NCBI RefSeq assembly: GCF_040412425.1
Contig: NC_089744.1
Span: 29,712,501 to 29,776,500, forward strand
From: Macrobrachium rosenbergii
Taxonomy: Eukaryota; Arthropoda; Malacostraca; Decapoda; Palaemonidae
Reading direction: 5' to 3'
Length of the DNA: 64,000 nt
Positions 20,266-56,191 of this stretch are shown one piece after another. The position numbers and the translations under genes were made by a program. The notes under the pieces were generated by a model. The model was not told where the DNA came from, did not search any database, and saw only the letters and a list, made by a program, of their open reading frames with translations. How positions within the stretch are numbered: the first letter of the stretch is position 1; each line of letters starts with the position of its first letter.

Positions 20266-20510
20266 GTATGATAGTTATTTGTTTGTTGTTTGTATAAGAT
20301 TTTTGTTCTGATGAATGACCTAATTTTCCATATACAGTACTCCAGTCTGCTTGTGGGGATATTATAGTTTTGTTTTAGAGCTTCTCATGAAATGACATGA
20401 AAGTGGTAAAATATAGTTTGAATTGTATCATTATGTTTTGTTGAGCATTATAGGCTGGACTTAAGTGCTGCAGTTTATATATCTCCAACATACATGTGTG
20501 TACATAATGT
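20266..20510 (+). other. MCRS1 intron, unique part before DIRS A3
   Basis: AT-rich intron after the GTATGA donor. Nothing else recognised before the T-tract at 20510-20514. Confidence 0.6.
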
Positions 20511-22572: not shown

Positions 22573-23628
22573 TGTAATGATATAAAGAAAGATTAAATAG
22601 GGAAGCATAAGAAAAAGAATAAAGAGAGAGAGAAAAAGAATAAAGAGAGAGAACAACAATTAAGCCTTGGTTGTTATGCTTTGCGAGGCTAGAAATGTCA
22701 CGTAAGCTAACCACAGGAAACCGTCTTTATACGAACTCAAAACAGTGAGTGAGTATATCACGCCCAGGGCCATAAAACTGATCATAAAATCTGGAACCTG
22801 TGCCCTTGCGATTCAGCTGACCAAGCATTACCTAGCACCTTGTCAGGAGTTAACATTCCAGACATATCTATAATCCTGCCTTCAATAGGAGGCGTTACAT
22901 GAATTTCCATGAAAATGGACTGGACAAAGTGAAGTAGTTCACCATTTCTCCAATTAGACATTGTAGGGAGGTGCTAGTAACACCTCCTCCTGAGGTCATT
23001 TCCAATCAAGTCCTCTAAGGAGAGATTTTAACAACACCCACAACTGTCCTTCCCAGTCAGGCTGTTCGAGGGGAGGCCTTACAGATAATATCTTCCAATG
23101 AGGTACCTTCAAGGGAGGAGATGGAAGATAGCAAGAAGAACCAGGGGTTCCAGAGCAGAACGAAGCCAGAGAAGAATCATTAGAGTCGATAGTCACCAAT
23201 GCGAGAAGACACAGCACTTCCCCCCAGCTTCCGTGGTCCTAACCAGACTCTGACCGCGGACTCCTTAACCAGATTCTGTCCACAGCTACTTAACCATACT
23301 CTGACCACGGGCTGCTTAACCAGACATAAACTGAACTTCGACTAGCAAGAGTGGTTTTGAAGATAGTAAAACTGTAACCGTAATTGTACTTGTGGATGTA
23401 ATTAACTTTCATCATTAAAGTAAGAAACTACCCATTCGTCTCCATTACGCCTTTCTGAGAGATATCATTACATTTCATTTAAACCCCTTCCTAATAATGA
23501 ACTCGTAAGCTGCTGACTATGGGAAGAGACGCTGTGGACGAATACGTCGCCAACTTAGAAGAAAAAGGCAGGTAAGAAGGAAACAATAATATGTCACACA
23601 AGTTATGAAAATAAACTTGTGCACGACA
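22573..23628 (+). mobile_element. Probable solo LTR inserted in DIRS A3 gag
   Basis: A 1056-bp insertion beginning TGTAATG and ending CGACA (TG..CA ends), with a 4-bp CTTT duplication. An AATAAA signal lies about 15 bases before the end. There is no gag or pol of its own. An 11-bp inverted match (22573-22583 with 23462-23472) raises the alternative of a 900-bp LTR plus a stub of internal sequence; a short Met-initiated peptide (MGRDAVDEYVANLEEKGR) lies at 23519-23575. Superfamily unknown; a 4-bp duplication suits Gypsy-type integrases. Confidence 0.55.
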
Positions 23629-23855
23629 CTTTCATGCTCAGACAGAGCAATTAGAGGTGGCTCTTTAGAACTCGCCTCCCTATTTTCTATGGGCATCCTT
23701 AAGAAGAGGGAGCTCTGGTACAATAATATGTCACACAAGTTATGAAAATAAACTTGTGCACGACACTTTCATGCTCAGACAGAGCAATTAGAGGTGGCTC
23801 TTTAGAACTCGCCTCCCTATTTTCTATGGGCATCCTTAAGAAGAGGGAGCTCTGG
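23583..23855 (+). repeat. Exact 137-bp tandem duplication
   Basis: Copies at 23583-23719 and 23720-23855 read the same. Each includes the tail of the LTR-like insertion, CTTT and the following gag segment (CSDRAIRGGSLELASLFSMG). It therefore arose after the LTR insertion. Near identity implies a recent event, or an assembly artefact. Confidence 0.85.
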
Positions 23856-24831
23856 TGTTCGTTGACCTCAAAAGGAGTCTCACCGACTCAGAAGTCAGCT
23901 CTACTATTCGCTCCTTTAGACAGGTCTCACCTCTTTCCTCAAAACACAGTGAAGGAGAGTCTTTTGGACTTGCAGAGTAAGTCTACCACCAACTTGTTGG
24001 CACAGTCCATTAGACGTCCGAAGGAGCCTGTGCTTTCCACGTCAGGATCGTTCTCCCCTCTACAGTCTCAGCCCTTTCATGGAGGGAAAGCTAAGACCCA
24101 GCCTTGACTTAGATCAAACTTTTGACCTCCTACGAAGTCCATTAAGAGGTCTTCCTTCAAATCCAACCCCAAGAAGTGAGAAGTTAGTCCTCCGTGCCCA
24201 GGTAGGAGCCAGACTTCTACTTTATTGGAAAGAATGGGAGAGCAGAGGAGCAGATCCCTGGGTGATGAAGGTTCTCAAGGAGGGGTACTCCATTCCTTTC
24301 ATAAAGACTCCTCCTTTAGTTACATCTCCAATTGCCTTGACAGCGTACTCAAAAGGTTCCACAAAGTTTTTGGCCCTCTCTCAAGAAGTCGAATCCCTTC
24401 TTTCCAAAGGAGCAGTGGAAGAAGTGCTAGATCCCACTCGGAAAGTTTCTACAATTGCCTTTTCGTGGTACCAAAGGCCTCGGGGGAGCTGGAGGCCCGT
24501 TCTTGATGTCAGCGCCTTGAATGTGTTCATACTGAAGACGAAGTTTTATATGGAGACTGTTCACTCAGTCATGTCCTCAGTACAACAGAGGAACTGGATG
24601 GTCACCCTGGATATGCAGGATGCATATTTTCATGTCCCTGTTCACCCAGACTTAAGAAAATTTCTATGCTTCATTTTTCAGGACAGGATACTGCAGTTCC
24701 TGCCCCTATGCTTTGGCTTATCGACGGCTCCTCAAGTTTTCACACAAGTCCTTGCCCCTCTGGGGAATTGGCTTCACCTTCTGGGAATCAACATCAACTT
24801 ATATCTAGATAATTGGCTTCCCTGCTCGTGA
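23742..24831 (+). pseudogene. DIRS reverse transcriptase (A3)
   Basis: Copies the element's RNA into cDNA when intact. Visible boxes: SWRPVLDVSALN (entry), WMVTLDMQDAYFHVPV (first catalytic Asp, 24600-24642), PLCFGLSTAPQVFTQVLAPL (box B), and YLDN at 24802-24813 in place of the usual YxDD. The frame is broken near 23860-24110 and ends at a TGA at 24829-24831; homology continues in another frame at 24848 (LGILINKKKSLLTPTQEIPY). Dead in this copy. Confidence 0.85.
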
Positions 24832-24847
24832 AAAGTGCGCAGAGGAC

Positions 24848-25611
24848 TTGAGAAGAACTCTTCGCATGACACAGGAGTTAGGCATTCTCATAAACAAAAA
24901 GAAATCCCTTCTGACACCAACTCAGGAGATTCCTTATTTAGGGATGATACTGAACTCTCGGACTTTTCGGGCTTTTCTGTCGCCCAAAAGAGTCGAGAAC
25001 TGCCTTCAGACTGTCAGTCAGTTCCTTGCTTTTCCTTCCTGCTCGGCAGTGCAGTGGATGAGTCTTCTGGGGACCCTCGCTTCAATAGAGCAGTTTGTGA
25101 AATTAGGCAGACTGCACATGAGACCCCTTCAGTTTTTCCTCAAAGCAAACTGGTGCAGAAAGACCCAACCAGACTCCCTCATCTTCCCGATTACGTCGGA
25201 AATCAAAGAGAAAGACTTCAGGAAGGGAAGTCTCTTCTCCCAGTGCACCCAGACCTTCTATTTTATTCAGATGCCTCTGACCTAGGCTGGGGCACCCTTC
25301 TGGACGGCTGGGAAGTCTCCGGAATATGGACTACGGTACAACATAATTCTCACATCAACATAAAGGAACTGAGAGTAATTCACCTGGGCCTTCAGTCCTT
25401 CTCGGATCTGGTCCGTGGCAAGAAGATTGTAGTACATGCAGACAACACCACGGCACTTGCTTACATTTGCAAATGGGGCATTCATTCCTTCTCTCTGTAC
25501 GAGACGGCGAGGGATCTCCTTCTGTGGCTGGAGGAGAACCACGTCACTCTTGTCACCCGGTTCATTCGAGGGAGAATGAACATGATTGTGGACGAATTAA
25601 GCCGCCTCTGA
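24848..25611 (+). pseudogene. DIRS RT thumb and RNase H (A3)
   Basis: The thumb segment (WMSLLGTLASIEQFVKLGRL, LHMRPLQFFLKANW) is at 24848-25200. After a frame change near 25205 comes RNase H: LFYSDASDLGWGTLLDGWEV (first Asp), NIKELRVIHLGLQ (Glu), VVHADNTTALAYI (Asp) and MIVDELSRL (last Asp). All four expected acidic residues are present. RNase H would remove template RNA during cDNA synthesis. Confidence 0.85.
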
Positions 25612-27042
25612 CAGGTCCTTCCAACCAAATGGACCTTAGACCTGATAGTATGTGACAACCTGTGGAAACCATGGGGCAAGCCCACAGTGGATCTTTTCGC
25701 AACGTTGAGAAACCACCATCTTCCCGTCCGTCTTTTGCCCTCCGGTCCCGGATCCTCAAGCATGGAGCACGGACGCCATGCTTTTGGACTGGACAGACTT
25801 AGATGTGTACGCCTTCCCTCCCTTCGGAATGATCAGGGAAGTAATCAACAAGCTGTCGACGCACCAGAACACCTTCATGACCCTAGTAGCCCCATGCTGG
25901 CCGAACAAGGAATGGTTTCCAGACATGATTCGATTCCTGGTAGATTATCCAAGACTCCTTCCACAAAAACGATCTCTGCACAGGCAACCCCACTTTCTCA
26001 GATTCCACCAAGGGTTATCCGCTCTGGCCCTGACAGGCTTCAGACTGTCAAGCGCCTCATCAGAGCAAAAGGTTTTTCGAGACAAGCTGCAGAGGCAATT
26101 GCAAGATGCAGACGAGCTTCTTCTACAAAGCTCTACCAACCAAAATGGGTAGTCTTCAGAAGGTGGTGCAGCCACCATAACATCTCTTTTTCTGAGACAT
26201 CTGTAAGTCAAAATAGCCGACTTTTTGATATTCCTAAAGTCCGTGAGGAAGCTATCGACCTCTACCATCAAAGGGTATAGGCCGATGCTCAGCTCAGTCT
26301 TTAAGCACAGTGGAATGGATCTGTCTTCTAATCAAGATATCAGCAACTTGATCAAATCCTTTGATACGTCCAAGAAAGAAAGTTCTTCCAACGTCTCTTG
26401 GAACTTAGATGTTGTACTGAAGTGGCTTTTACGGCCTCAATTCGAACATCTTTGTTCTGTTTCCCTGAGGAATCTCATGGAAAAGACTCTCTTTTAGTGG
26501 CTCTCACTACTGCCAAACGTATTAGCGAGTTACAGTCAATATACAAAAAAATAGGTTTTGCACAAGAGGATGCAGTCTGCTCTCTTATCTTGGTTTTCTC
26601 ACAAAGAACAAGGACCCTTCCAAACCCTGGCCTAGATCCTTCATCATCAAGAACCTTATGGATATGACCTGAGGAGGAAGAAAGACTCCTCTGTCCAGTG
26701 AGGTGTCTCAGGTACTATCTTCAGAGGACGGAAAAGATAGAGGACTTTCAAGCAACCTCTGATGCTCTGTAAGAAACCCAGTTTGCCCACTCTCCAAAAT
26801 ACCATATCCTTTTTCCCTGAGAGAGTTAATATTAGAAGCCCACTTTCAGATCCAGGTAGAAGCCTTTCCATTACTTAAATTTAAGGCTCACGAAATTAAG
26901 GCAGTCGCAACTTCCCTCTCTTTCAGACACAACTTGTCTCTTTCCATGATCCTACAGTTGACGCTCTGGAGATGCAAGTCCATATTCGCCTCACACTACC
27001 TCAAGGACATAGAAACCGTGTTTGAAATTGTAACACTTTAGG
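25612..27042 (+). pseudogene. DIRS tyrosine recombinase (A3)
   Basis: In DIRS elements this enzyme integrates circular cDNA without target duplication. Visible: LDWTDLDVYAFPPFGMIREV (linker), RLQTVKRLIRAKGFSRQAAE and STKLYQPKW (core-binding domain), and TTAKRISELQS (first catalytic Arg, near 26510). Then comes FKAHEIKAVATSLSFRHNLS near 26880, where the second Arg of the H-x2-R box reads Lys here but Arg in A4, and SHYLKDIE (candidate catalytic Tyr) near 26990. Several frameshifts make it inactive. Confidence 0.8.
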
Positions 27043-34149: not shown

Positions 34150-34930
34150 TGGCCTTCATGTATGCTGTGGCACTGCCTCTTGGCGTATCTGTGATCCATC
34201 TGCTCCTGCTAACTCGACAACAGTCTCTGGGTGGCTCTTCCTGGTCTCCTGCTGCAGCCGCCCTGATCAATCCTGTCACTGCTGGTGACTTTCATGTGAC
34301 GTTCCTGGCTGTTGCTGTAGCTCCTGCCTTCCAAACCGCTTCCGTAGCTCCTGCATCGGCTGTCTTGATCGTGCCTGCTGCTTCTCCTGGTGGTCGTGCC
34401 CGGGCCGCTTCTGTTGGGTTCCTGCCTAGCTGCCCTGGAGGTTATGATGTCCGCCATCCTGTAGAAGTTGTCGGAGTGAAGGTGAAGGAAGTCGCCCTGC
34501 AGAAGCAATGTTCCTTGCCGTTGCGTTAGCTCCTGCCTTCTGAACCGCTGCCGTAGCTCCTGCATCGGCTGTCATGATCGTGCCTGCTGCTTCTCCTGGT
34601 GGTCGTGCCCGGAGCCACTTCCATTGTGTTCCTGCCTAGCTGGCCTGGAGGTTATGATGTCTGCCATCCTGTAGAAGTTGTCGGAGTGAAGGTGAAGGAA
34701 GTCGCCCTGTGGAAGCGACATTCCTGGCTGTTGCGGTAGCTCCTGCCTTCTGAACCGCTGCCATAGCGCCTGCATCGGCTGTCCTGATTATGCTTGCTGC
34801 TTCTGGTGGTCGTGTCCTGGGCCGCTTCCGTTGTTTTCCTGCCTAGCTGCCCTGAAGGTTACGATGTTTCATGTCCACCGTCCTGTAGATGTCTCAGTGA
34901 AGGTGAAGGAAGTCGCTCTGTGGAAGTAGC
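34150..34930 (+). repeat. About 210-bp tandem repeats in B3 gag region
   Basis: Equivalent points at 34360, 34569 and 34779 (CTGTC-TGAT-GTGCCTGCTGC type) give periods of 209 and 210 bp. Three copies, the last incomplete, each with CCTGTAGAAGTTGTCGGAGT-like sequence. The 210-bp period is 70 codons, but one copy is off by a base. Confidence 0.8.
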
Positions 34931-40920: not shown

Positions 40921-42376
40921 TTAACCCTTAAACGCCGAGCCTCTATTTACAAAAGTGTCTGTCGTATGCCGGCGGCGTTCAGAAGTTAGCGCCGAAGTGG
41001 AAAAAAAGTTTTTTTCAAAAAATCACAGCACGCTTAGTTTTTAGTTTTTAAGTTCATTTTAAGAGTTCATTTTTGGCTCCTTTTTTTGTCATTGCCTGAA
41101 GTTTAGTATGCAACCATCAGAAATGAAAAAAAATATTATTATATATAAATATGACAGCGCAAAAAAAAAATTTCATATATAATTGTATACAAATCGTGCT
41201 GTGAGCAAAACGGTTAAAGCTAGAGTTATTTTTTTATTTTTTTTTTTCGTTGTATTGTAAACTAAATTGCGATGATTTTGGTATATAACAAATTGTAAAA
41301 TGATCAAAGCAACACAGAGAAAATATTATCACAAAATGATGCATGAATTCGTAACACGCGGACGTAAAAACAAGTTTTTTCTAAAATTCACCATAAATCA
41401 AAATATTGTGCTAGAGACTTCCCGTTTGTTGCAAAATGAAGGTAATTGATTGAATATTACTAGACTGTAAGTGTTTTAGCTTACAATTGCAGTTTTCAAC
41501 CATTTCGGTCGAGTTAAAGTTGACCGAAGGTCGAATTTTTTCTATTTATCGTGATTGATATGAAAATATTTCAAAACTGATAAAAGCTACAACCATGAGT
41601 TATTTTTTGTTGTATTCTACATGATATTGCACACATTTTCATGTATAACATTTTATGTAAGGCCTAATGTAAACTAATATAAAACGGTGCAGAAATTACG
41701 ACAAGGTGACTAAAGAAATTCGGAGATTTTCAGCAGAGTTACCGCGCACGGAGGGAAGGAAGAAGTTTTTTCAAAAATTCACCATAAATCGAAATATTGT
41801 GCTAGAGACTTCAAATTTGTTACAAAATGAAGGTAAATGATTGAATGTTGCTAGAATGTAAGAGTTTTAGCTTGCAGTTGCATTTTTCGACCATTTCGGT
41901 CGAGTCAAAGTTGACCTTAGGTTTAAATTTTGGCACTTATCGTGATTTATATGAAAATATTTCAAAACTGGTAAAAGCTACAACCATGAGTTATTTTTTG
42001 TTGTATTCTACATGAAATTGTGCACATTCTCATGTATAACACTTTATGTAACGCCTAATATAAAACGGTGCAAAAATTACGACAAAGTGACAAAAGAATT
42101 TCTGAGATGTGTTGCTGAAGCTCTGTAGTGCGAGAAGAAAGAAATTCGCGCATGCGCGGCTGGGTAACGCTTGTAAACAAAACAACAGCGTGATCCGTGA
42201 ACTCCCAGTATCCCTCAAGGTGCGTGATTTAAAATCTTTCGCAAACTAGGCCTATAACTATTTTTCCACGAATATTTAAAAAAACTTTTTGTAGTCGATG
42301 TACCGTACGTCCACTCGGCACCCAACAGACAATTTTAGTCGACGTACGATACGTCCAGTCGGCATTTAAGGATTAA
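40921..42376. mobile_element. TTAA-flanked non-autonomous element carrying satellite (short copy)
   Basis: TTAA at 40921-40924 and 42373-42376. The left end after TTAA is CCCTTAAACGCCGAGCC and the right end is GGCATTTAAGGA, its diverged inverse. TTAA targets and CCC-type termini are hallmarks of piggyBac-superfamily elements. No transposase. The interior has two full ~390-bp satellite units (shared word CACCATAAAT at 41389 and 41780) plus a partial third. The right end carries two copies of a GTCGACGTACGATACGTCC-like subterminal motif. 1456 bp in total. Confidence 0.85.
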
Positions 42377-44191
42377 CTGTCAGCGTTACCAACACTTACA
42401 GGAAAATCTTGTTAAATGAGTTACCTGAAGAACCGTTGGCAACGCTACTTCAAGTCCCGGCCGAGTGAGGCCGAGATCCCCAATTGCTTTTCGTTCGCCA
42501 CAGTGTGTGGGTGTGTCCCACATCAGGCAAACTTTTGGTCATTTAGCCCGACCCCCATTTAAAGAATTTGGATATCAGATTACGATTTGGACTGTTTTCA
42601 ACGCATTTTCTCCTGGATGGATACTTTATTGATTGGATTTGGAACTTCTATCCCAGTTTTGACTTTGGGATCGGTACTTTGGACTCGATTAGGTAAGTCA
42701 AACAAGAAGATGTCACCGTCTGCTAGCGCCGATACTTCCACTTCGTTTACATCTTCGACAACGGAGCCTTCTACTGCTGGAGATGCTGACTTCTTAGAAG
42801 GTTCTTGCTTAACCTATTCTAGGATTATTTAAAACTTAAGGATATAAACTATAAAGAAAATAATCCTCTTATAATCTGGTTTTCTGTGGCCAAGACTACC
42901 CTTTTATCTGATATTCGGCCATCGCTGTTTTAGGTAAATAGGATATTCCTTAAAAAGGGGTTCCTACTTAATCTGTTAGGTTACTGCCTCTTCTAGGTTT
43001 ATATCACCTTTAAGGATATAGGCTACACAAGATCCCTACTAGTATGTAGCCTCACAGACATGCTACAGAGTCATAAAAAAGTAGGTTATTTTATTGAGTG
43101 TAGGATACTGTTTATATATAATCATAGGCTTATTTGTTCTTTCTTAACCTAGTATAGGGTATTGCCTAATCCAGATTATTATAGATCACTTTTAAATGTA
43201 TAGGCTAGGCTATATAAAAACAGAAAACTTACTATGTAACCTTATAGGTAAGTCTACTATTTTTTGTCTAACCGAGGTTGTTGTTTATATCCAATCCTAG
43301 GCTATTTGGTCTACTATATAAAACAATAACTCACTAATGTGTAACCTTAAAGCCAGGCCATAACTTACTCTGATCTACGCTACTGCCTAATCTGGATTTA
43401 ATTCACACTTGAGGGTATGGGTTACATAAAACACAATTAGCTTACCTTTGTATATAGCCTAAATGATAGGTTACCATCTCATCCAGCACAGATTACTATT
43501 TCATTTAGTCCCAGGTTAGATGGTCTAGGCTAACAGTTTATCCAAAAATGGGATGTTTCATAAAAAGTTACCACTTAACTTGATATAAAGTAATGCCTAG
43601 GCTAGTCCTGGATTATTTAGCTCATGCTTAAGTGCACAGGCTTATATAAAAGGAAAAAATTTATACTAATACGTAGCCTTATTGTTAGGCTATCAATTTA
43701 TTTTGCCCAGATATTGTTATTATCTAATCCTAGGGTCCTGGGTCAAAGGTAGGCCACTTAAGGATATGTAATCCAAGGACATAGGCTACAGACAACATCC
43801 ACTATTAACTTAGTCTAAATTGTCCTCACTTACTGCTTAGATTATTGTAGACGTCGTATAATCTTAAAGGATTTTCTATATTAATGGAAAGTTGTGGAAC
43901 ACTTCTTTTAGTTAAAACATTTAGTTGGAATTTGAAAGAATTTTCACTTTATGAAACTAGGTAGCAATAAACGCTTTACGAAACTAGGTAGGCTAGCAAT
44001 CAACGAGTGGGGTCCCGGCTCTCATGACAAAATTATCAATTTCAAAAGTTTAAAACTAAAACTTTTTGTAGAACTTAATATTAAGCACTTATCTTGCTAT
44101 TTTTGATGTTTCCATGATCCTCGATAATGAAAACGGAGAAAAAGTCAAATTTTTTTTGGAGCGCTGGCAACGATGTGAATAGTTTGCTATA
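42377..44191 (+). other. Unassigned stretch inside C1 with an 81-codon open frame
   Basis: At 42587-42832 an open frame starts MDCFQRIFSWMDTLLIGFGT and becomes Ser/Thr-rich (SPSASADTSTSFTSSTTEPS). Upstream is GC-richer sequence unlike its surroundings (42440-42560). It might be a transposon gag start or a promoter/first-exon-like fragment; I do not recognise it. 42840-43900 is AT-rich with recurrent TAGGCTA-like words. Confidence 0.3.
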
Positions 44192-45887
44192 CAGTGAACC
44201 CCCCCTCCCCCCCGTATCCGCGGTCTCAAGATTCACAGACTCACCTATTTGCAGATTTCTCTGTGGAACATATATACGCATTATTTGCTGAAAATCCGCC
44301 CATTCACGGTATTTTTCACTGAGAAATATTCACTAATTACTGTATTTTCATCTCATTTTCATAACTAAATGCACTTTTTGTGATAAAACTATTAAAATAC
44401 TTAGTAAGTACTCGAGTTACGGTATTTAACCTTATGATAATTTGATTTTGCAATGGGGTAAGCAATTAATACCGATACGACAATATTTATAAAATATTTT
44501 AAAATTCACGAGGGCGCAGGCAGCAGCATACAGGCAGTGAGAGAGATCAAATTACAATATACCAGCTTCTTTTCCTCCAACTCTTTATCCCATCTAGTTA
44601 AAAAAGTAACTGAGAATGATAAAAGTATTGTTAGTGATGTTATACTCTTGCATAAATGTGTACAGCCATAAACAACCGACCGAGAAACTGTTGTTTTGTT
44701 TATCACCAAATCGGATAACAACAGACCTTTTGCTTGTATTTCAACCATCGTACGGTAATACACAATTACTGTAGGTTATAGTAGAAGTGATGTTTATTAG
44801 AATAGGAGTGATATATTTTTACATTATACCCTTATTCGGTATGGATAAAAGATCGGCAAGGAAGTGTACTGCTAAATTTAAGCTGGAAGTTGTAGCTGAA
44901 GCTGAGAAAACAAGTTCAAGCTGCTAATGACTAAATTATCATGCATCGGCAACATGTATGAAACTCGACCGTAATTAAAATTGGAGAGAAAGTATGTTAA
45001 TCAACACTACTGGGCATGAAAGAATGCATTACTGCTATTTTTACGCTGATAAACAATAAATACATAAAGCTCTTATGATGAAATCAAGTGAAAATAACAA
45101 ACAGAATCTTGATTTTTTTTACACAAAATAAACGCCTCCAAACGGCCAACATCATCTCTTAACAAAAAAAAAAAATAGCTAAATTAATTTCACAACGAGA
45201 AGTACAGTATTTAAGTTATATTTAGAAGGAAGAAAAGCACTCTAAACTGAGTTAAACACGGTGAAATAAACGATTTCCAAACCAAAACATTGACGGCTAT
45301 GACCGCAATAGATAATACAAAAGCAATATAAGAATATATATACAATATTATTGGGTACAGTGAATTAAGGCATAACATTTTAAAAGATGCATATTCGTTA
45401 TGATGTTTGTATAATAAGATATGTGAATATAGAGTATAGCACAATGTAGGCTAGGCTACCGTATATGTATACGATATACTATAGTGTAGGCTAAGCTAAT
45501 TTTGTTTGTTATATTTCTCTTTGTATTGAATTATCATAAATCACTGCATGAACCTCCAGAATTAGCTGATATTAATAATTACTATACTGTGTATGTATAG
45601 GGTATGCTTTATAGTGTAGGCTAGGTTACCATATATGTATACGTGGTACTGAATACCCTAATGTAGGCTAGGCTATATTCGAGATACGTTTTTCCCAACA
45701 AACGATGGGTATTTTTGGAACCTAACCCCATTGTAAGTAGGATAATACCTGTATAAGCATTTTTAGTTATTTTTTTGTGTCCCTGAACTATCAAAATAGG
45801 CAGTTCTAAGTTTAAGTATTCGCGGGTTCTAGCTATTCGCGGGGGAGGGTGTGGTACGCATCCCCCGCGAATATGGGGGGTTTATTG
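44192..45887 (+). mobile_element. Pogo/Tigger-like DNA transposon relic
   Basis: TA dinucleotides flank it (44190-44191 and 45888-45889). The termini CAGTGAACCCCCC and GGGGGGTTTATTG are inverted, as in Tc1/mariner-pogo elements. A short transposase remnant lies near 44840-45000: MDKRSARKCTAKFKLEVVAE (helix-turn-helix start), then a shift and NWRESML-like sequence. The catalytic DDE region is absent, so it is a deletion derivative. Confidence 0.75.
44840..45000 (+). pseudogene. Pogo/Tigger transposase N-terminal remnant
   Basis: About 50 codons of a Psq/CENP-B-type DNA-binding domain with a frame break near 44920 and stops. The K-F-K-L-E-V-V pattern is typical of the family's first helix. Confidence 0.6.
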
Positions 45888-46203
45888 TAGACCAGAGAGA
45901 GTAATGGCTCCTTGGTCTCTAACGGCCCGGTTGTAAACGAGGGCGGATGCATGTGCACAATAGTCATTTCTCTTTCTTGCAGGTTCTTTTGATGTTGGAA
46001 AAACTGGGTTCAGCTTCTTTGAGTCCATTATATACTCCATCACGTGTTATAATGTTATTCATTACGACACAACACCTGGCCAAAAAGACCAACTGGAAGA
46101 GAATTCTTAGATATTAGTTTGGTCACCATGGAGTTCTGGTAGACCATGGAAGGTAACTCCTTGAGGACGAAGCAAGCAACTACACTATCAAAAAGTGAGA
46201 TTT

Positions 46204-47760
46204 GTGGTGCTCGTCCACTTCTAAGCGGGGTCACTCGGTCACTCCCTCCCAACATTCTTCCCTGTTGTTCACTCCTTTAGATTGCACCAGTTTGTTTCCA
46301 CAAGAAACTTTGGAACGAGTGACGGGCGAACTGCAGAAGAAGTCAACCCAAGACCTGCTCCCTCAGTCTGCCAAGAGGACTAGGATTCTTGCATGACCTT
46401 CTTCTTCATCGGTTTCAAATGTCAGGACTTCTTCTCCACTGGCTTAGAAGCTCTTTCGAGGAAGTAGAGGCCGGTTCCAGTCCCGTCCGAGAGCCAATCT
46501 GCGTCCAGTGCGACCCAGCAAGAAGCCTTCCAACAAGCCCATCCCTCGCTAGTGAGCTCGAGAAGCAGGCGGTGGAAGAAGTCGAGGATACAAGCACAGA
46601 GGGATTTTACAATCGCCTCTTCGTAGTCCTCAGGTCATCAGGGGGATGGAGACCTGTCCTGAACGTCAGTGCTCTGAACTTCTTTATTCAAACTACGAAG
46701 TTCAAAATGGAAACGAATCAGTTGGTCCTGTTAGCCATCCACCGGGGAGATTGGATGGTCACGGTAAATATGCAGGACACATACTTTCACATTCCAATTC
46801 ACCCAAACTACAGAAAGTATCTGAGATTCATGTTCCAGGACAGGGTCTTCCAGTTTCAGGCTCTGTGCTTCGGCCTCTCCACAGCTCCTCAAGTTTTTAC
46901 CCGTGTTCTCGCTCCATTGGCGAAGTGGTTGCACCTCATGGGAATAAAAGCGTCTGTACCTGGACAACTGGCTCCTACGCTCCCCCTCGAAATCCCAGTG
47001 CACGGAGGACCTTCAGAAGACTCTTCAGCTTGCACAAGATTTACTCAGTCAATTCTACATTTGGGGATAGTGATAGATTTTCAGAATTTTCAGGCTTTTC
47101 TGTACCAACAAAGGATTCTCACTTGCATCAGGAAAGTCTGGAAATTCATTTCTCGCCCATCCTGCTCAGCCAATGCTTGGATGAGCCTTCTAGGAACACT
47201 GTCCTCAATAGAGGAGCTTGTTCCTCTGGGCAGATTACACACCAGACTGCTACAATTTTACCTCAGAGCCAACTGGTGGAGGAAAGTCTTTCCAGATTCA
47301 TTCGTCTTCGAAATCACCCCCGAAATCAAGGAGGACCTTCATTTGGTGGCTGGTGGAAAACAGATTTGTGACAGGGATGTTGCTGTCTCCTGTGAACCCC
47401 GACCTAATGTTTTACTCCAAAGCGTCAGATCTGGGTTAGGGAGCTCTTCTCAACGGTTTTGAGGTGTCGGGGTTATGGTCTCCGACCGAAAGAAACCTCC
47501 ACATAAATGTAAAAGAGTTGAAGACGATACACCTTGCTCTTCAGTGCTTTGCAACAGAGACCTTTGACAGGACAGTTGCGGTCCATTTGGACAGTATGAC
47601 CGCACTGGCCTACATCAAGAACACCATGGAGGGACCCACTCCTTTTCGCAGTGCGAAGCGGCCAAGGACTCTATTCTGTGGGCAGAGAGCAACAAGACCA
47701 CCATTGTGACCTGCTTCATCCAGGGCAAGGAACGTCCTTGCGGATGAATTGAGTCGCGGC
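46204..47760 (+). pseudogene. DIRS RT and RNase H (A4)
   Basis: Gag end/RT entry (WCSSTSKRG, GGWRPVLNVSALNFFI), then WMVTVNMQDTYFHIPIHPNY (first catalytic Asp reads Asn), LCFGLSTAPQVFTRVLAPLA, and YLDN at 46957-46968. Thumb WMSLLGTLSSIEELVPLGRL. RNase H: PDLMFYSKASDLG (first Asp replaced by Lys), NVKELKTIHLALQ, AVHLDSMTALAYI and VLADELSRG. Frame changes at about 46960, 47355, 47440 and 47640. Two acidic catalytic residues are altered, so the copy is dead. Confidence 0.83.
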
Positions 47761-48870
47761 AAACAGGTTCTACCAGCGGAGTGGACACTCAGTCCACAGG
47801 TGTGCACCAACCTGTGGAGGCTGTGGGGAGAACCTTTGGTAGACCTGTTTGCAACGTCAAGAAACCATCGTCTCCCTCTGTACTGTTCCACGACGCTGGA
47901 TCTGCAAGTTTGGGCGACAGATGCCATGCTGCTGGATTGGTCGGATTTCAACGTTTACGCCTTTCCTCCCTTCAGCATGGTAAGGAAAGTGTTGAAGTTC
48001 AGTACCCATAGCAACACTTCAGTGACCCTGGTGGCTACCTTTTGGCCACAAGGAATGGTTCCCAGGCCTTCTAAGTCTGTTGGTAGATTATCCAAGGCTT
48101 AAACCTCAGAAGAGAAATCTTCTCAAGACAGCCGCACTTTCAACGTTTTCACCTAGGCTTATCCCCTCGCTCTGACAGGCTTCAGACTGTCAGGAAGCAT
48201 GTCAGAGTGAATGGTTTTTCAAGGAAGGCTGCAGAAGCTATTGCAAAGTGTAGGCGACGATCTTTTGCTGCAGTCTACTAAGCTAAGTGGACAGTATGAG
48301 GAAGACCCTTTTTCTGATGGCCATAGCTACAGCTAAAAGGACTAATGAGCTGCATTCCCTTGATAAGAGAGTAGGCTTTGCTCAAGGTGATGCTGTTTGT
48401 TCGTTGACCTTAGGATTCATGGCAAAGAACGAAGACCCTACTAAACCCTGGCCACGTTCTTTTTCAGGCAAGAGCCTGTCTAACATCCTAGGTCAAGCGG
48501 ATCAGGAGAGAGTCCTCTGCCCAGTTAGATCTCTTCACGAGTACTTAAGGAGAACCAATGGAATTAGAGGTTCTTCTCCTGAACCTGTAGTGTTCAGTTA
48601 AAGACCCCAGTCGTCCTTTTTCTAAAAACACCTTAAGGTTCTTTTTGAGGACTGTGATTTCTGAATCACACTCAGAGATTTCCTGCCTTTATGTAAGGTC
48701 AAGGCACATGAAATTAGGGCAGTCACAATGTCGCTGGCCTTCAGACGTAACCTATCGCTGGCTTCTATCCTGCAGTCCACATATTGAAAATGTAATTCAG
48801 TGTTTGCAATGTCCTACCTACACTATGTTGAAACAGTACATGAAAGATGCAGCACTCTAGACCCGTACTT
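47761..48870 (+). pseudogene. DIRS tyrosine recombinase (A4)
   Basis: Linker LDWSDFNVYAFPPFSMVRKV, core-binding segment (RLQTVRKHVRVNGFSRKAAE in a shifted frame), then ATAKRTNELHSLDKRVGFAQ (first catalytic Arg) and LCPVRSLHEYLRR. A second box near 48705 reads KAHEIRAVTMSLAFRRNLSL (Arg intact), with the end near 48830 (MSYLHYVE, candidate Tyr). Several stops and shifts, and part of the core-binding domain is missing between 48275 and 48290. Confidence 0.78.
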
Positions 48871-49379
48871 TGCAGCTGGCATGGTGTTGGGGGATGAAGG
48901 ATAGGAGGAATGTCTTTGTTTTTCCTTTATCCACTCTCCTTGAATAAGGATTGTTTTCTTGGGAAGCCTGATTGGCACTGTGTCGTGAGTGCCATCAGTT
49001 TGTTTGAATTTTAACGTGTTTGTGGTGTAGGTTTTAAATTTCATTTGGTCATATTTTATTGTACTGCGTCCGGGGCAAGGGCACACACATATTTGATGTG
49101 TCTTTTTGGATTTTTAGCTTTGGCAACCTGCAATTGATTCCTATGTTGCAAAACACATGCTAAAGTAGAGGCGACTCTTGACTCTACTGCCACATCGCTA
49201 CAGGTCGAGAGGAACTCCAACTTGAGGTAGTACCTATCTGCCATAACTCCCTTACCAAGTAAGGTTACAACAAGAATTTCACAATGCTAGCTAATTTCTT
49301 TATTTCAAATTCATCTCCATCTCCGAGTGTTTTTTTAGTAGTTTTGTCTGTGTATCCCACCACCTGTCAGTGTGGGATT

Positions 49380-49475
49380 CAGCTATGTAATTATTTGGTT
49401 AAGTTACTTAAATGAAAATGACATTTTTATAATAAAGTTTTATATATACTTACCAAATAATTACATGATTGGAGT
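49380..49475 (+). repeat. Internal complementary region of A4
   Basis: Complements both extreme ends of A4 (30615-30650 and 49640-49688), as in A3. Confidence 0.75.
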
Positions 49476-49499
49476 CCTCCCGCCTCCCCTCTCATGGAC

Positions 49500-49660
49500 G
49501 TAGAGCATAAACAAATTGAGCTCTTTAGCTGTGTTTTACCTATCCTTCCCTGAAAGTGGGCAGGGCAGTCTACCTACACCCAAAACAAAAGAGCACTACA
49601 GCAAATTTTGAATTTTGAGTTGCTGCGTAAAGTAGAAACTAATAGCTATGTAATTATTTG
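49500..49660 (-). repeat. A4 right inverted terminal repeat
   Basis: Inverted complement of 30625-30785, for example GAGCTCTTTAGC with the left CTAAAGAGCTC. Confidence 0.85.
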
Positions 49661-49849
49661 GTAATTTTATCATGAAAATGACATTTTTCAGAAGTATGTG
49701 GTAGGAACAACTGAATGTAAATTCTGGTAGTATATCTGCAAAATTATTTCATTTGAACCAGCAAATTTCAGTAAAAATATAAAATTAAGTTTAAATTAAT
49801 ACAATTTAGTTTTTAAAGCTTTAATACTCCTACATGGTCATGTGTAGCA

Positions 49850-50272
49850 TTAAGTGTCAGCACTTCCAGTGTGAATCAGTGCATTAAATATTCCATCACG
49901 CCATATTAATTTAATATCCAATGGAATATCCTTAGTTATATTATAAAAATGGTCTGGCACCAATAGGCTCTGTTTACAAGGTGAATCTGTATCTCTTGTA
50001 CAAAATGAAAATTGAGAGTTTTTGCCCCCCGTTATTATAAACCAATAAGGTATTGCATGAAGAACAGAGGACTGAATTGCTTTTGTATTGGCTAAGACAG
50101 TCACAATATCACCTCCAAGTATTAATAACTCTTCTTTATCAGTTTGCTTGCAAAGTTTTTGTAAAGGTTCTACATCTCCCGTTGTAAGTGATAGCTGTAA
50201 CATGGATAGTGGTTGTGGGATTACTGAAGTGTGAGGTAGGCTATCCAAGTGAACATCCACGTGATGAGTTGT
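49850..50272 (-). CDS. Probable terminal coding exon of an antisense host gene
   Basis: The minus-strand frame is open for 140 codons plus TAA. It is preceded by a good acceptor (TTGATTTTCCAG, 50284-50273) and followed by an A/T-rich 3' region with ATTAAA-like signals. The peptide is non-repetitive and protein-like (TTHHVDVHLDSLPHTSVIPQ at the start; LLILGGDIVTVLANTK; PYWFIITGGKNSQFSF; DIKLIWRDGIFNALIHTG near the end). No stop or shift, unlike the transposons around it. I do not recognise the family. It lies in the MCRS1 intron just past DIRS A4. Confidence 0.55.
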   Translation of the reverse strand, partial: TTHHVDVHLDSLPHTSVIPQPLSMLQLSLTTGDVEPLQKLCKQTDKEELLILGGDIVTVLANTKAIQSSVLHAIPYWFIITGGKNSQFSFCTRDTDSPCKQSLLVPDHFYNITKDIPLDIKLIWRDGIFNALIHTGSADT

Positions 50273-50560
50273 CTGGAAAATCAACATAAATATTAGTTCA
50301 ATTATTTTTTCTGCAAAAGTCCTATTCTATATTATAGGGAATATACTCAAGCTGAATTATAAAAATTGCAAACAGTCTGAAACAAGTGCAATTCAATTAG
50401 AAATCATGGGTCTATGGTGTGGGAGCTATTAATATTTCATTGGAATATTGTACCTATGACTGGGGTCTTGATAATGTATAGCGGTCACAAATTAAAATTT
50501 TCTGAAAATTTTAGGTACAGTACTGCAGTGTTTTGTGAAACCATTGATATTTTCCAACAG

Positions 50561-50763
50561 ATTCATGATTCAGAACTATACGAAAGTAGCGATGACTTGC
50601 TGGAGCATGAACTTGGGATAGCAAGCCGAGGAAGCAAAAGAGAGATAAGGTTACTTGAAGACCAGGTCTCCAAATGGCAAGTCTTGGTAGATACAGTCAC
50701 AGGAATCTCTCCTCCAGAATTTGACAACCAGACATTGGCTGTCCTACGTGGTCGATTAGTAAG
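50561..50763 (+). CDS. MCRS1: MCRS1 exon: coiled coil and pre-FHA region
   Basis: 203 nt, entering in phase 0 (CCAACAG acceptor) and leaving with two bases of an Arg codon (donor GTAGGA from 50764). It encodes ESSDDLLEHELGIASRGSKR, a basic/acidic helix (EIRLLEDQVSKWQVLVDTVT) and SPPEFDNQTLAVLRGRLV. This matches the MCRS1 segment just before the FHA domain, a coiled coil used in self-association or partner binding. An upstream open stretch to 50414 is intronic. Confidence 0.93.
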
Positions 50764-51011
50764 GTAGGATTTGCTCATCTTTCAGTTTGGAACAAAATCC
50801 AGTGACATCTACATGATGTAGTAGAAATGCAAATGTTGCAGAATTACCTCTAAAACATTTTACTGTGTTCTTAAAGACATAGTCTTTAGCTGAATATTGG
50901 TATAATACAAACATCTTCGTGCAGATTAATACCAGTACAGTCACTTTTTGAATAAGTTTAAATAATGTGTTTTTGTTTTAACATGAGCAAGTATTTATAG
51001 AGGTATGCTCT

Positions 51012-51217
51012 ACTGACACAGTAACATGGTAATTTTCATTTAAAGTTAATTTACTCTTGAAAATCATTTCCAAATCAGCCGCAGATCTAGGATGGTCCAG
51101 AGTGGCGATTATGTCACAAACACCCACTTTGCCTAGTGGTAGGAGAGGGAAACGTTTACCCAGTGGTCCTAGATATACAGTACCATAATTATTGCACAAA
51201 TGCAATAATTTTACCTT
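51012..51217 (-). CDS. Probable upstream exon of the antisense host gene
   Basis: On the minus strand, an acceptor-like CATACAG ends at 51218. An open phase-0 frame follows: KVKLLHLCNNYGTVYLGPLG, PLLPLGKVGVCDIIATLDHP, DLEMIFKSKLTLNENYHVTV. An alternative acceptor (ATCTAG) lies further in. A weak donor (TCA/GTAGAG) near 51012 would join in phase 0 to the exon at 50272. Boundaries are uncertain. If real, MCRS1 exon 50561-50763 sits in this gene's intron and the two genes interleave on opposite strands. Confidence 0.45.
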
Positions 51218-52110
51218 CTGTATGATATATGATACCATGTGTACACTAATGGAATTATTCACAGAATTGTACAATAATCAACTGGAAATGTACAATGATT
51301 TGAACATTTTTGTCAGTATGAAAAAATGGAGAAGAAATTGCATTCTCTCTCTCAACTGTTTTATGAAGAAGTGTCTAACTATATGTGTTCAGTTGACACA
51401 AGGATTTTATTCAAGCCCACAGTGCAGAATTTAAATGTAGTACAGTAGAGTATTAATAATATTTCTTAAATATTATTGTGACGTAAACCTTAAAATTGGC
51501 AAACTTGCTCAAGAGTCCAGGATTGGTAACTCTCCTTATTAATGTTTGTTTCTTATGGGAAAATATTATCTTTAAATACAATTTCAAATAATAAGACCTC
51601 TACTGGAAAGTAATCCTTGCTTTAATCTAGAGTTAACTGTAAGAATTCTCTCTTTCTTTTTCACATTTTGATAAATCTTGAGTTAACTGTAATAATTTTT
51701 TCTTCCTTTTCACATTTTGATAAATCTATGTTATATCAACTTTAAACATACTGGCTTTTCAAATGACATTTTTGCTGATGTGTTGAGCTTTCAGAGGAAT
51801 TGTAGATTTTGAGGAAACTAGAAATGTAATGGATCATGAAGTTGTAATATAAGTGGTTTTCCTTCTTATGTAGAGGGAATAGTTAACATTGTTGTACAAA
51901 GGTAGGTAGTTAGAAGAATTCTGTGTAAAAAGTAATGCATCAGTGCTTCAGTAGCATTTCATATATCATTTATTCATGTTTTCTTGAACAGGTTTAGTTT
52001 TTCATTTTAATTCTAAATTTAATTGTAACTAAAAAGGTCTGCCTGAAGAGTTGACAAATTTACGAATTTTGTTAAATAAGTATTAGCTATGAAAATTTTT
52101 TATATAGCAG
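51218..52110 (+). other. MCRS1 intron, AT-rich, with a 50-bp tandem duplication
   Basis: GAGTTAACTGTAA-type units start at 51630 and 51680 (period 50). Nothing else recognised. Confidence 0.5.
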
Positions 52111-54042
52111 TTAACCCTTAAATGCCGAGCCTCTATTTACAAAAGTGTCTGCCGTATGCCGGCGGCGTTCAGAAGTTGGCGCCGCAGCTGACACGCTTAG
52201 TTTTTAAGATTAAGAGTTCATTTTTGGCTCCTTTTTTTGTCATTGCCCGAAGTTTAGTATGCAACCATCAGAAATTAAAAAAATATCATTATCATATATA
52301 AATATTGGAATATATGACAGCACAAAAAAAAATTTCATATATAATTGTATACAAATCGTGCTGTGAGAAAAATGGTTAAAGCTAATAAGTTATTTTTTTA
52401 TTGTATTGTACACTAAATTGCGATGATTTTGGTATATAACAAACTGTAAAATGATCAAAGCAACACAGAGAAAATATTATCACAAAATGATGCATGAATT
52501 TGTGACGTGCAAAAGTAAAAAAAAGTTTTTTTCAAAAATTCACCATAAATCAAAATATTGCGCTAGAGACTTCCCATTTGTTGCAAAATGTAGGTAATTG
52601 ATTGAATATTACTAGACTGTAAGTGTTTTAGCTTCCAATTGCAGTTTTCGACCATTTCAGTCGAGTTAAAGTTGACTGAAGGTCGAATTTTTTCTATTTA
52701 TCGTGATTTATATGAAAATATTTTAAAACTGATAAAAGCTACAACCATGAATTATTTTTTGTTGTATTCTACATGAAATTGCACACATTTTCATGTATAA
52801 CACTTTATGTAACACCTAATAGAAAAGGGTGCGAAAATTACGACAAGGTGACTAAAGAAATTCTGAGATTTTCAGCAGAGTAACCGTGCGAGGAGGTAAG
52901 GAAAAAGTTTTTTAAAAAATTCACCATAAATCGAAATATTGTGCTAGAGACTTCCCGTTTGTTGCAAAATGAAGGTATAAGATTGAATGTTACTAGAATG
53001 TAAGAGTTTTAGCTTACAATTGCATTTTTCGACCATTTCGGTCGAGTCAAAGTTGACCATAGGTTTAAATTTTGGCACTTATCATGATTTATATGAAAAT
53101 ATTTCAAAACTGATAAAAGCTACAACCATGAGTTATTTTTCGTTGTATTCTACATGAAATTGCACACATTTTCATGTATAAAACTTTATGTAATGCCTAA
53201 TAGAAAACTGTGCAAAAATTACAACAAAGTGACTAAAGAATTTCTGAGATTTTCAGCAGAGTTAGGGCGGACGTAAGGAAAATAGTTTTTTTCAAAAATT
53301 CACCATAAATCAAAATATTGTTCTAGAGACTTCTCGTTTGTTGCAAAATGAAAGTAAATGATTGAATATTACTAAAATGTAAGAGGTTTAGCTTACAATT
53401 GCATTTTTCAACCATTTCGGTCGAGTCAAAGTTGACTGTAGGTTTAAATTTTTGCACTTATCGTGATTTATATGAAAATATTTCAAAACTGATAAAAGCT
53501 ACCACCATGAGTTATTTTTTGTTGTATTGTACATGAAATTGCGCACATTTTCATATATAAAACTTTATGTAACGACTAATATAAAACGGTGCAAATATTA
53601 CAACAACGAGACGAAAGAATTTCTGAGATGTTCGGCCGAGTTGCGCGCAGACGTAAGGAAAATGTTTTTTCAAAAATTCACCATAAATCGAAATATTGTG
53701 CTAGAGACTTCCAATTTATTGCAAAATGAAGGTAAAAGATTGAATATTACTAGAATGTAAGAGTTTTAGCTTACAATTGCGTTTTTTACCATTTTCGGTC
53801 GAGTTAAAGTTGACCGAAGGTTGAAATTTTGGCAGTTATCGTGATTTATGTGAAAATATTTCAAAACTGATAAAAGCTACAACCATGAGCTATCTTCTGT
53901 TGTATTCTACATGAAATTGCGCACATTTTCATAAATAAAAGTTTATGTAACGACTAATGTAAACGATGCAAACATTACGACAACATGACGGAAGAATTTC
54001 TGAGATGTTCGGCCGAGTTACCAGCAAGAGCGTAAGGAAAAA

Positions 54043-54074
<32 letters not shown>

Positions 54075-56191
54075 CAGAAATTCACCATAAATCGAAATAT
54101 TGTGCTAGAGACTTCCAGTTTGTTGCAAAATGAAGGTACATGATTGAATATTACTAGAATGTAAGAGTTTTAGCTTATAATTGCATTTTTTACCATTTTC
54201 GGTCGAGTCAGAGTTGACCATAGGTTTTAAATTTTGGCACTTATCATGATTTATATGAAAATATTTCAAAACTGATAAAAGCTACAACCATGAGTTATTT
54301 TTCGTTGTATTCTACATGAAATTGCACACATTTTCATGTATAAAACTTTATGTAATGCCTAATAGAAAACTGTGCAAAAATTACAACAAAGTGACTAAAG
54401 AATTTCTGAGATTTTCAGCAGAGTTAGGGGCGGACGTAAGGAAAATAGTTTTTTCAAAATTCACCATAAATCAAAATATTGTTCTAGAGACTTCTCGTTT
54501 GTTGCAAAATGAAAGTAAATGATTGAATATTACTAAAATGTAAGAGGTTTAGCTTACAATTGCATTTTTCAACCATTTCGGTCGAGTCAAAGTTGACTGT
54601 AGGTTTAAATTTTTGCACTTATCGTGATTTATATGAAAATATTTCAAAACTGATAAAGCTACCACCATGAGTTATTTTTGTTGTATTGTACATGAAATTG
54701 CGCACATTTTCATATATAAAACTTTATGTAACGACTAATATAAAACGGTGCAAATATTACAACAACGACGAAAGAATTTCTGAGATGTTGGCCGAGTTAC
54801 AGCGCAGACGTAAGGAAAATGTTTTTTCAAAAATTCACCATAAATCGAAATATTGTGCTAGAGACTTCCAATTTATTGCAAAATGAAGGTAAAAGATTGA
54901 ATATTACTAGAATGTAAGAGTTTTAGCTTACAATTGCGTTTTTTTACCATTTCGGTCGAGTTAAAGTTGACCGAAGGTTGAAATTTTGGCAGTTATCGTG
55001 ATTTATGTGAAAATATTTCAAAACTGATAAAAGCTACAACCATGAGCTATCTTCTGTTGTATTCTACATGAAATTGCGCACATTTTCATATATAAAAGTT
55101 TATGTAACGACTAATGTAAAACGATGCAAACATTACGACAACATGACGGAAGAATTTCTGAGATGTTCGGCCGAGTTACCGCGCAGACGTAAGGAAAAAG
55201 TTTTTTTTTTTTTTTTTTTTTCAGAAATTCACCATAAATCGAAATATTGTGCTAGAGACTTCCAGTTTGTTGCAAAATGAAGGTACATGATTGAATATTA
55301 CTAGAATGTAAGAGTTTTAGCTTATAATTGCGTTTTTTACCATTTGGTCGAGTTAAAGTTGACCAAGCTTGAAATTTTGGCAGTTATCGTGATTTATATG
55401 AAAATATTTCAAAACTGATAAAAGCTACAACCATGAGTTATTTTCTGTTGTATTCTACATGAAATTGCACACATTTCCATATATAAAACTTTATGTAACG
55501 ACTAATATAAAACAGTGCAAACATTACAACAACGTGTGAAAGAATTTCTGATGCGGACGTAAAGGAATAAGTTTTTTCAAAAATTCACCATAAATCGAAA
55601 TATTGTGCTAGAGACTTCCAATTGGTTACAAAATGAAGGTAAATGATTGAATATTACTAGAATGTAAGGGTTTTAGCTTACAATTGCGGTTTTTGACCAT
55701 TTCGGTCGAGTCAAAGTTGACCGAAGGTTGAAATTTTGGCAGTTATCGTGATTTATATGAAAATATTTCAAAACTGATAAAAGCTACAACCATGAGTTAT
55801 TTTCTGTTGTATTGTACAGCACATTTTCATACATAAAACTTTATGTAACGGCTAATATAGAACAGTGCAAAAATTACAACAAAATGAAGAAAGAATTTCT
55901 GAAATTTTCGGCGAGTTACAGCGGGGCGTAAGAAAAAGTTTTTCAAAAATTCACCATAAATCGAAATATTGTGCTAGAGGCTTTGAAATTGTTGCAAAAT
56001 GAAGGTACATGATTGAATATTACTAGAATGTAAGAGTTTTAGCTTACAATTGCGTTTTTCGACCATTTCAGTAGAGTCAAAGTTGACCGAAGGTTGAAAT
56101 TTTTTGTAGTCGACGTACGATACGTCCACTTGGCACCCAACAGACAATTTTAGTCGACATATGATACGTCCAGTAGGCGTTTAAGGGTTAA
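52111..56191. mobile_element. TTAA-flanked non-autonomous element with expanded satellite (long copy)
   Basis: TTAA at 52111-52114 and 56188-56191; the ends CCCTTAAATGCCGAGCC and AGGCGTTTAAGGG are near-perfect inverses. It has the same ends and flanks as 40921-42376, but 4081 bp long. Ten satellite units are marked by CACCATAAAT at 52541, 52922, 53301, 53679, 54083, 54462, 54836, 55230, 55586 and 55952 (spacing 356-404 bp). Long poly-T tracts interrupt two units. Open frames of 66-78 codons recur in the units. No transposase. Confidence 0.88.
52541..56100. repeat. About 375-bp satellite array (10 units)
   Basis: Each unit holds the same blocks in order: CACCATAAATCGAAATATTG, GTGCTAGAGACTTC, ACCATTTCGGTCGAGT, TTATCGTGATTTATATGAAA, AAAGCTACAACCATGAG. 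Units 3-5 (53301-54461) and 6-8 (54462-55585) match pairwise better than neighbours, showing a duplicated trimer of about 1.16 kb. Confidence 0.88.

What the first reader, a model, noticed from the sequence alone, without database searches (positions are those of the whole stretch)
40921..56191. A piggyBac-type TTAA element that carries and expands a satellite
Two copies (40921-42376 and 52111-56191) share TTAA flanks and CCCTTAAA-GCC inverted ends, but contain about 2 versus 10 units of the same ~375-bp satellite. This suggests the mobile element seeds satellite arrays, or that satellite copy number changes inside it after insertion. The link between TTAA ends and satellite content is seen directly; the direction of causation is inference.
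Basis: partly seen in the sequence, partly recalled or inferred. Interest (0 to 1): 0.8.

Follow-up and report, generated by a model that had tools for sequence, protein, structure and literature searches.

The report
Satellite-carrying TTAA jumping element family
The two sequences are copies of a common, non-coding jumping-DNA family that carries a short run of tandem repeats inside it; the run travels with the element and can lengthen afterwards, a combination already known from other animals.

Summary
A (40921-42376) and B (52111-56191) run TTAA to TTAA, share 14-bp inverted ends (12 of 14 matching) and carry 2 versus 9 full plus 1 partial units of about 379 bp. The host genome (3.18 Gb; probably a decapod, inferred) has 1,564 exact matches to a 21-base left-end word and 26,517 to a unit word. 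All 31 complete copies read carry satellite; 29 have TTAA on both sides. Eight empty-site alignments from six insertions support TTAA insertion. Of 42 clusters chosen by unit word alone, 30 have an end at element distance; shifted controls 0-3. Units keep their position class between copies (71 of 101; permutation mean 35), so arrays ride with the element. B also shows an unequal exchange, its duplicated tracts 1.6% diverged against 7.3% for A/B, so that growth postdates the A/B split. Seeding of long free-standing arrays was not seen, on a small listed sample. No autonomous partner was shown. New member of a known kind (Pokey, miDNA4, Xstir, Cg_HINE).

The parts
40921..42376 (+). Element A, complete, TTAA to TTAA, 1456 bp, 2 full satellite units, right-unique segment present
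40921..40938 (+). A left TTAA plus 14-bp terminal inverted repeat
41206..41386 (+). A: region of a diverged, partial 'unit 0' in register before unit 1
   Evidence: family consensus of this region aligns in register to the unit consensus, z 14.5 against 1000 shuffles; in A alone the signal is weaker, z 3.1 to 6.6
41387..41777 (+). A satellite unit 1
   Evidence: 93.2% to B unit 1, its best match
41778..42130 (+). A satellite unit 2
   Evidence: 90.0% to B unit 2, its best match
42131..42284 (+). A right-unique segment (RU), present in 19 of 31 complete copies, absent in B
42289..42376 (+). A right subterminal region, inverted repeat and TTAA
52111..56191 (+). Element B, complete, TTAA to TTAA, 4081 bp, 9 full and 1 truncated unit, RU absent
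52111..52128 (+). B left TTAA plus 14-bp terminal inverted repeat
52367..52538 (+). B: region of the diverged, partial 'unit 0'
   Evidence: z 6.3 to 9.8 against shuffles for three units; family consensus
52539..55949 (+). B satellite units 1 to 9
53030..54190 (+). B duplicated three-unit tract, first copy
   Evidence: 16 substitutions in 1012 positions away from gaps against the second copy; 28 mismatches in 1144 aligned positions without that filter
54081..54459 (+). B unit 5, chimeric: up to about column 112 like unit 8 (one site of eight like unit 2), the rest like unit 2
54191..55337 (+). B duplicated three-unit tract, second copy
55950..56103 (+). B unit 10, cut short by the right end; the like cut is seen in 10 of the other 11 RU-less copies, and in L045+5586 the printed stretch ends before it
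56104..56191 (+). B right subterminal region, inverted repeat and TTAA

Best explanation
A and B are two insertions of one large family of non-autonomous, non-coding TTAA elements of piggyBac type. The body of the element is a short tandem array of a 379-bp unit. Shown: insertion at TTAA, array between the ends in every complete copy read, array inherited with the element through its spread, and array length altered by exchange between misaligned units, in B after its split from A. Inferred: movement is by a piggyBac transposase supplied in trans; the length change in B happened at its present site.
For: 31 complete copies, 29 with TTAA on both sides and 2 with CTAA on the left. Eight joined-flank alignments, from six insertions, run through unoccupied relatives of the target; in 3 of the 8 the TTAA is intact in the empty relative. 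Thirty of 42 clusters chosen by unit alone have an end at element distance, shifted controls 0-3. Best matches between copies join units of the same position class in 71 of 101 cases; permutation mean 34.9, maximum 54 in 2000. The right boundary exists in two forms, with RU (19 of 31) or without (12 of 31), so boundaries spread with copies. B units 2-4 recur as 5-7 at 96.8, 99.2 and 96.7%, unit 5 is a chimera of units 8 and 2, and the tracts differ at 16 of 1012 positions against 79 of 1081 for A/B. Unit number does not follow the tree of 30 copies: 18 changes, shuffled mean 16.5. PiggyBac transposases are present: 4,696 first-look candidates, 116 scored, all 117 matches above the curated cut-off, 0 of 14 control genomes ringing.
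Against: No transposase with these ends was shown; a looser end search listed no right end beyond the one transposase that lay near an end. Twelve of 42 unit clusters had no detected end, and 14 of 47 listed ends had no exact-unit cluster at element distance. The 31 copies were found by similarity to B's left 390 bp, which includes the array's left edge and favours well-kept copies; only the best 40 of 3,383 candidates were scored. Two fetched copies (L040, L041) had no right end within 6 kb.
Confidence: 0.85

Rival explanations
1. Array length changes mainly before or during transposition (in source copies or in repair of the donor gap), and copies are then inserted with different lengths.
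For: Two right-boundary forms each occur in many copies, so some changes did precede spreading; unit number varies among copies on a star-like tree.
Against: B's duplication (16/1012, 1.6%) is about a fifth as diverged as A/B (79/1081, 7.3%) and B's own end branch is 0.054, so this event is late in B's lineage. It could still have occurred in an unseen source copy of B.
Confidence: 0.3
2. The satellite is an independent, free-standing family, and TTAA elements picked it up or inserted around it repeatedly.
For: 12 of 42 unit clusters without a detected end.
Against: Unit 1 and unit 2 differ between A and B about as much as the element's left part does (23/345, 22/315, 25/333), and a diverged unit 0 sits in register at the array's left edge in the family consensus: one old association rather than repeated capture.
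Confidence: 0.07
3. The element belongs to another TTAA-inserting superfamily (for example Kolobok).
For: TTAA alone does not decide; Kolobok also inserts at TTAA (recalled; a Kolobok paper with 23 mentions of TTAA was in the listing, not read).
Against: Ends carry the CC[C/T]T motif and their 14 bp fall within the 12-19 bp given as piggyBac hallmarks in PMC2872659 (passages).
Confidence: 0.1
4. B's extra units are an assembly artefact.
For: Tandem arrays are prone to misassembly (general knowledge).
Against: The repeated tracts differ by substitutions, small indels and poly-T length and have a chimeric junction.
Confidence: 0.03

Closest known systems
Pokey (piggyBac superfamily, Daphnia), PMC3849761 (passages read)
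   Same: TTAA insertion, piggyBac type, crustacean, about 200-bp internal repeats varying from 2 to 5 per element, called highly recombinogenic
   Different: Pokey's repeats come from the rDNA spacer and evolve in concert with it, and lie in transposase-bearing elements; its small relatives mPok lack them. Here the repeats fill a non-coding element and keep position-specific divergence
miDNA4 MITE with satellite, Xenopus tropicalis (Scalvenzi and Pollet 2014; not read, seen only as described in PMC12628747 and PMC9659126)
   Same: A MITE carrying one monomer or a variable array; model of internal array growth
   Different: Tc1/mariner type; capture of a pre-existing repeat proposed
Xstir tandem repeats on a MITE, Xenopus (Hikosaka and Kawahara 2004; not read, seen only in citing papers)
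   Same: Internal part of a MITE amplified in tandem; PMC2872659 speaks of a piggyBac-MITE
   Different: Stem-loop mechanism proposed; separate tandem arrays also reported; sequences were not compared here
Cg_HINE Helentrons of the Pacific oyster, PMC7492417 (passages read)
   Same: Thousands of dispersed short arrays, mostly up to 5 monomers, as the centre of non-autonomous elements; joined flanks used to find paralogous empty sites
   Different: Classified as Helentron, monomers mostly 140-180 bp
CMITE, Acropora corals, PMC2872659 (passages read)
   Same: TTAA, CC[C/T]T ends, non-autonomous, piggyBac-related
   Different: Tandem arrays there are of the whole element, not of an internal unit

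Membership tests
piggyBac superfamily (non-autonomous member) | TTAA target site duplication | tested here: met
   29 of 31 complete copies TTAA on both sides, 2 with CTAA left; eight empty-site alignments from six insertions, 3 of 8 with intact TTAA
piggyBac superfamily (non-autonomous member) | 12-19 bp inverted ends with CC[C/T]T | tested here: met
   14-bp CCCTTAAAYGCCGA ends; arms match at 8 to 14 of 14 positions over 31 copies, the two values of 8 coming from a one-base deletion; a few single ends have a changed CC[C/T]T motif; definition from PMC2872659
piggyBac superfamily (non-autonomous member) | DDE_Tnp_1_7 transposase in the element or in a partner with the same ends | tested here: inconclusive
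   No frame of 150 aa or more in A or B. Transposases abundant in the genome; one lies 4.5 kb from a lone exact end, no right end listed; its DNA could not be read
MITE | Short, non-coding, high copy number, uniform size | tested here: not met
   Numerous and without frames of 150 aa in A and B, but 552-4081 bp and not uniform; MITE-like only
Classical satellite DNA | Tandem monomers in long arrays | tested here: inconclusive
   Tandem yes; the 100 listed exact units on contig 1 form clusters of at most 5 exact units. The remaining 26,417 of 26,517 places were counted but not listed
Kolobok | Kolobok transposase and ends | not tested
   No Kolobok model was searched

The most novel reading that the evidence does not exclude
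The array is not a passenger but helps the element move: none of the 31 complete copies lacks satellite sequence (the smallest, 552 bp, keeps parts adding up to about one unit), and a larger relative with the same ends and a transposase may exist near C1:21530298. The array would then be kept by transposition itself. The sample was drawn with a query that reaches the array's left edge, so array-free copies may have been missed.
Probability: 0.1. Interest if true: 0.6.

Novelty: new member of a known kind. Interest (0 to 1): 0.3.

Why it matters
It gives a family of thousands of end and unit matches in one assembly, in which the fate of a tandem array can be followed copy by copy: position-specific homology, two inherited right boundaries and a relatively dated unequal exchange. 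It supports the view that dispersed short satellite arrays are spread by transposons. It does not show conversion into long satellite arrays.

Tried and rejected
Viral contigs were searched for the end and for the unit: 0 matches each. A search of the paper library for four words from the element gave 0 papers. Facing pairs of copies about 4.7 kb apart in L033, L035, L039 and L042 suggested a composite element; their inner regions do not match one another, and by eye the printed frames over 120 aa showed no transposase (no family search was run on them), so I dropped it. The transposase at C1:21534779-21535849 downstream of a lone exact end at C1:21530298 was dropped as proof because no further end of either direction was listed before 23.6 Mb; that one of the 7 scored transposases on the listed stretch lies so near an end has roughly a 5% chance by my own rough reckoning, not by a call. 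Of 17 alignment rows spanning a joined-flank junction I looked at 8 in detail and left out 9: L023 against the window (70% over 103), one self-match of L024, and seven L045 rows (local tandem repeats, and L016, which overlaps L045). Never answered: a 21-base right-end word, A's empty site, an exact-unit count, a left-end count with mismatches.
Full report
Observation. The left end TTAACCCTTAAA starts at 40921 and 52111 and the inverted right end closes at 42376 and 56191. Counting TTAA at both sides, A is 1456 bp and B 4081 bp; the 14-bp ends following TTAA match at 12 of 14 positions in each. The unit of about 379 bp starts twice in A and ten times in B; B's tenth unit is cut to 154 bp. No other part of the window matches beyond T-rich runs, and the 400-bp flanks of A and B show no match to each other. 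No open frame of 150 codons or more lies in either copy.

The family. The window lies at G000:C4:29712501-29776500 of a 3.18-Gb assembly in 78 contigs. B's left 390 bp gave 3,383 first-look candidates, of which 40 were scored, giving 41 matches. Exact 35-base left ends number 712, exact 21-base left cores 1,564, exact 18-base ends 3,528, each with 0 in the reversed control; a looser end pattern gives 6,710 against 549 in its control. A 35-base unit word with up to 3 mismatches has 26,517 matches, control 0, which at 379 bp each would be about 10 Mb or 0.3% of the genome (inference).

Anatomy of copies. I fetched 20 stretches of about 9.8 kb. Of the 30 short loci I analysed 10 (L021-L030), because L001 is B itself and L002-L020 lie in the stretches; L021 also overlaps L050, which I noticed only on checking. 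Together with the window this gave 38 left ends (37 distinct), of which 31, all distinct, had a right end in reach. All 31 carry satellite; 29 have TTAA on both sides and 2 have CTAA on the left. Sizes run from 552 to 4081 bp. B, with ten unit starts, is the longest; the commonest rounded count in the 30 copies used for the tree is four (12 of 30; the 552-bp copy was left out for lack of a unit over 300 bp). Seven left ends had no right end: five lie in short loci, but L040 and L041 had none within 6 kb. Of 191 unit matches 4 fell outside an assigned element, all in L021 next to a neighbouring right end; matches within 6 kb of a left end without a right end were counted as assigned. This set was chosen by left-end similarity, so I made a second test that does not depend on the ends.

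Satellite chosen by itself. The 100 unit places listed, all exact and on contig 1 up to 59.75 Mb, form 42 clusters with at most 5 exact units (same strand, gaps under 1.6 kb). Thirty of the 42 have at least one end of the right orientation at element distance (300-2400 bp on the left, up to 1400 bp on the right). The distances fall into narrow groups, 439-493, 825-876 and 1606-1674 bp on the left and 241 or 563-612 bp on the right, with single values of 358 and 1317. Shifting the ends by eight offsets gives 0 to 3. Twelve clusters had no detected end; one of them (8162347-8165302) merges two copies, one with a listed left end at 8163295, but I left it in the misses. Conversely 33 of 47 listed ends have an exact-unit cluster at element distance and 14 do not. 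No long array was seen, but only 100 of 26,517 places were listed.

Transposition. Joined flanks of 31 copies were compared with the DNA held. Of 17 rows that span the junction I examined 8, from six insertions; the other 9 are named under Tried and rejected. In the 8, the joined flanks align through an unoccupied relative of the same target repeat at 69 to 86% identity; the TTAA is intact in 3 of the 8 relatives (L023 against L033, L025 against the window at 42817-43272, L049 against L031), and the other 5 carry substitutions or a gap at the site. This supports insertion at TTAA with a four-base duplication. The ends carry the CC[C/T]T motif, and PMC2872659 gives TTAA with 12-19 bp CC[C/T]T ends as piggyBac hallmarks (passages). 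PF13843 was found in the genome: 4,696 first-look candidates, 116 scored, 117 matches, all marked above the cut-off, many without stop codons, and none in 14 control genomes. No transposase with these ends was shown. The best-scoring one lies 4.5 kb downstream of a lone exact end, but no further end is listed there.

Array history. Units sit in the same positional class as their best match in another copy in 71 of 101 cases (permutation mean 34.9, maximum 54 in 2000). Divergence within a copy (10.5%) is about that between copies (10.0-12.3%), so there is little homogenisation. A's units 1 and 2 are closest to B's units 1 and 2, and A/B divergence is alike in the left part (25/333), unit 1 (23/345) and unit 2 (22/315), with 9/88 at the right end. 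A diverged partial unit lies in register before unit 1 in the family consensus (score 134, shuffled maximum 67, z 14.5, reversed control 29). In the single copies it is weaker: against three units z 3.1 to 6.6 in A, where two scores do not exceed the shuffled maximum, and 6.3 to 9.8 in B. The right edge has two forms, with a 154-bp segment (19 of 31) or without it (12 of 31), the latter cut within a unit at a like place in 11 of 12, the print for L045+5586 ending short of it. The array therefore predates the spread of the copies and was carried by it.

Change of length. In B, units 2-4 recur as units 5-7 (96.8, 99.2, 96.7%). At sites where units 2 and 8 differ, unit 5 matches unit 8 up to about column 112, with one exception, and unit 2 after it, the mark of an exchange between misaligned units. 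The repeated tracts differ at 16 of 1012 positions away from gaps, 1.6% (28 of 1144 without that filter), against 79 of 1081, 7.3%, between A and B. The event is thus later than the A/B split. On the tree of 30 copies, which is star-like with only 3 of 27 inner branches well supported, unit number needs 18 changes, no fewer than shuffled labels (mean 16.5). Whether B's growth took place at its present site or in a source copy cannot be told from one assembly.

Known relatives. The kind is known. Pokey in Daphnia is a piggyBac element with 2 to 5 internal 200-bp repeats (PMC3849761, passages). miDNA4 and Xstir are satellite-bearing MITEs of Xenopus (seen as described in PMC12628747, PMC9659126 and PMC2872659; the original papers were not read). 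Oyster Cg_HINE elements carry thousands of short arrays (PMC7492417, passages). Five paper searches on satellites in such elements (titles and starts of abstracts of the listed rows seen) and one for sequence words listed no report that I could recognise as this family; most subscription papers are not in that library. The passages seen of the crayfish repeat survey PMC7859515 did not describe such an element.

Host. Among the 120 listed of 1,122 matches of a window reverse transcriptase, the named eukaryotic ones are Macrobrachium proteins at 45-56% identity; the top rows bear metagenome labels.

Verdict. Confirmed observation, interpretation partly right: a satellite-carrying TTAA element whose array travels with it and can grow; seeding of free satellite arrays not shown. 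New member of a known kind.

Noticed in passing
G000:C1:7.99-8.27 Mb: 13 of the 42 unit-selected clusters of contig 1 lie in about 280 kb, far denser than elsewhere on the listed part of the contig.
   Followed up: no
L033, L035, L039, L042, L045, L049: Six of 20 fetched stretches hold a second complete copy within about 7 kb, five in opposite orientation; inner regions of four of the pairs do not match one another.
   Followed up: partly
L024 near its right end; G000:C1:21528276 and 21530298: Hints of copies abutting at a shared TTAA, as reported for Pokey.
   Followed up: no
window 42817-43272: Relative of the repeat into which the copy in L025 inserted; unoccupied, TTAA intact.
   Followed up: partly
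window 23953-26280 and 46323-47462: Reverse-transcriptase frames (RVT_1; the second below the Pfam cut-off); the second has Macrobrachium relatives.
   Followed up: partly
window 19687-20268: Frame with the N-terminal micro-spherule protein domain (MCRS_N, E 4.8e-34), likely an exon of a host gene.
   Followed up: no
window 23583-23856 and 34298-34926: A perfect 137-bp tandem duplication and a threefold 210-bp repeat, neither matching A or B.
   Followed up: no
window 54045-54074: Poly-T tract of 30 just before B unit 5, shorter before unit 8.
   Followed up: no
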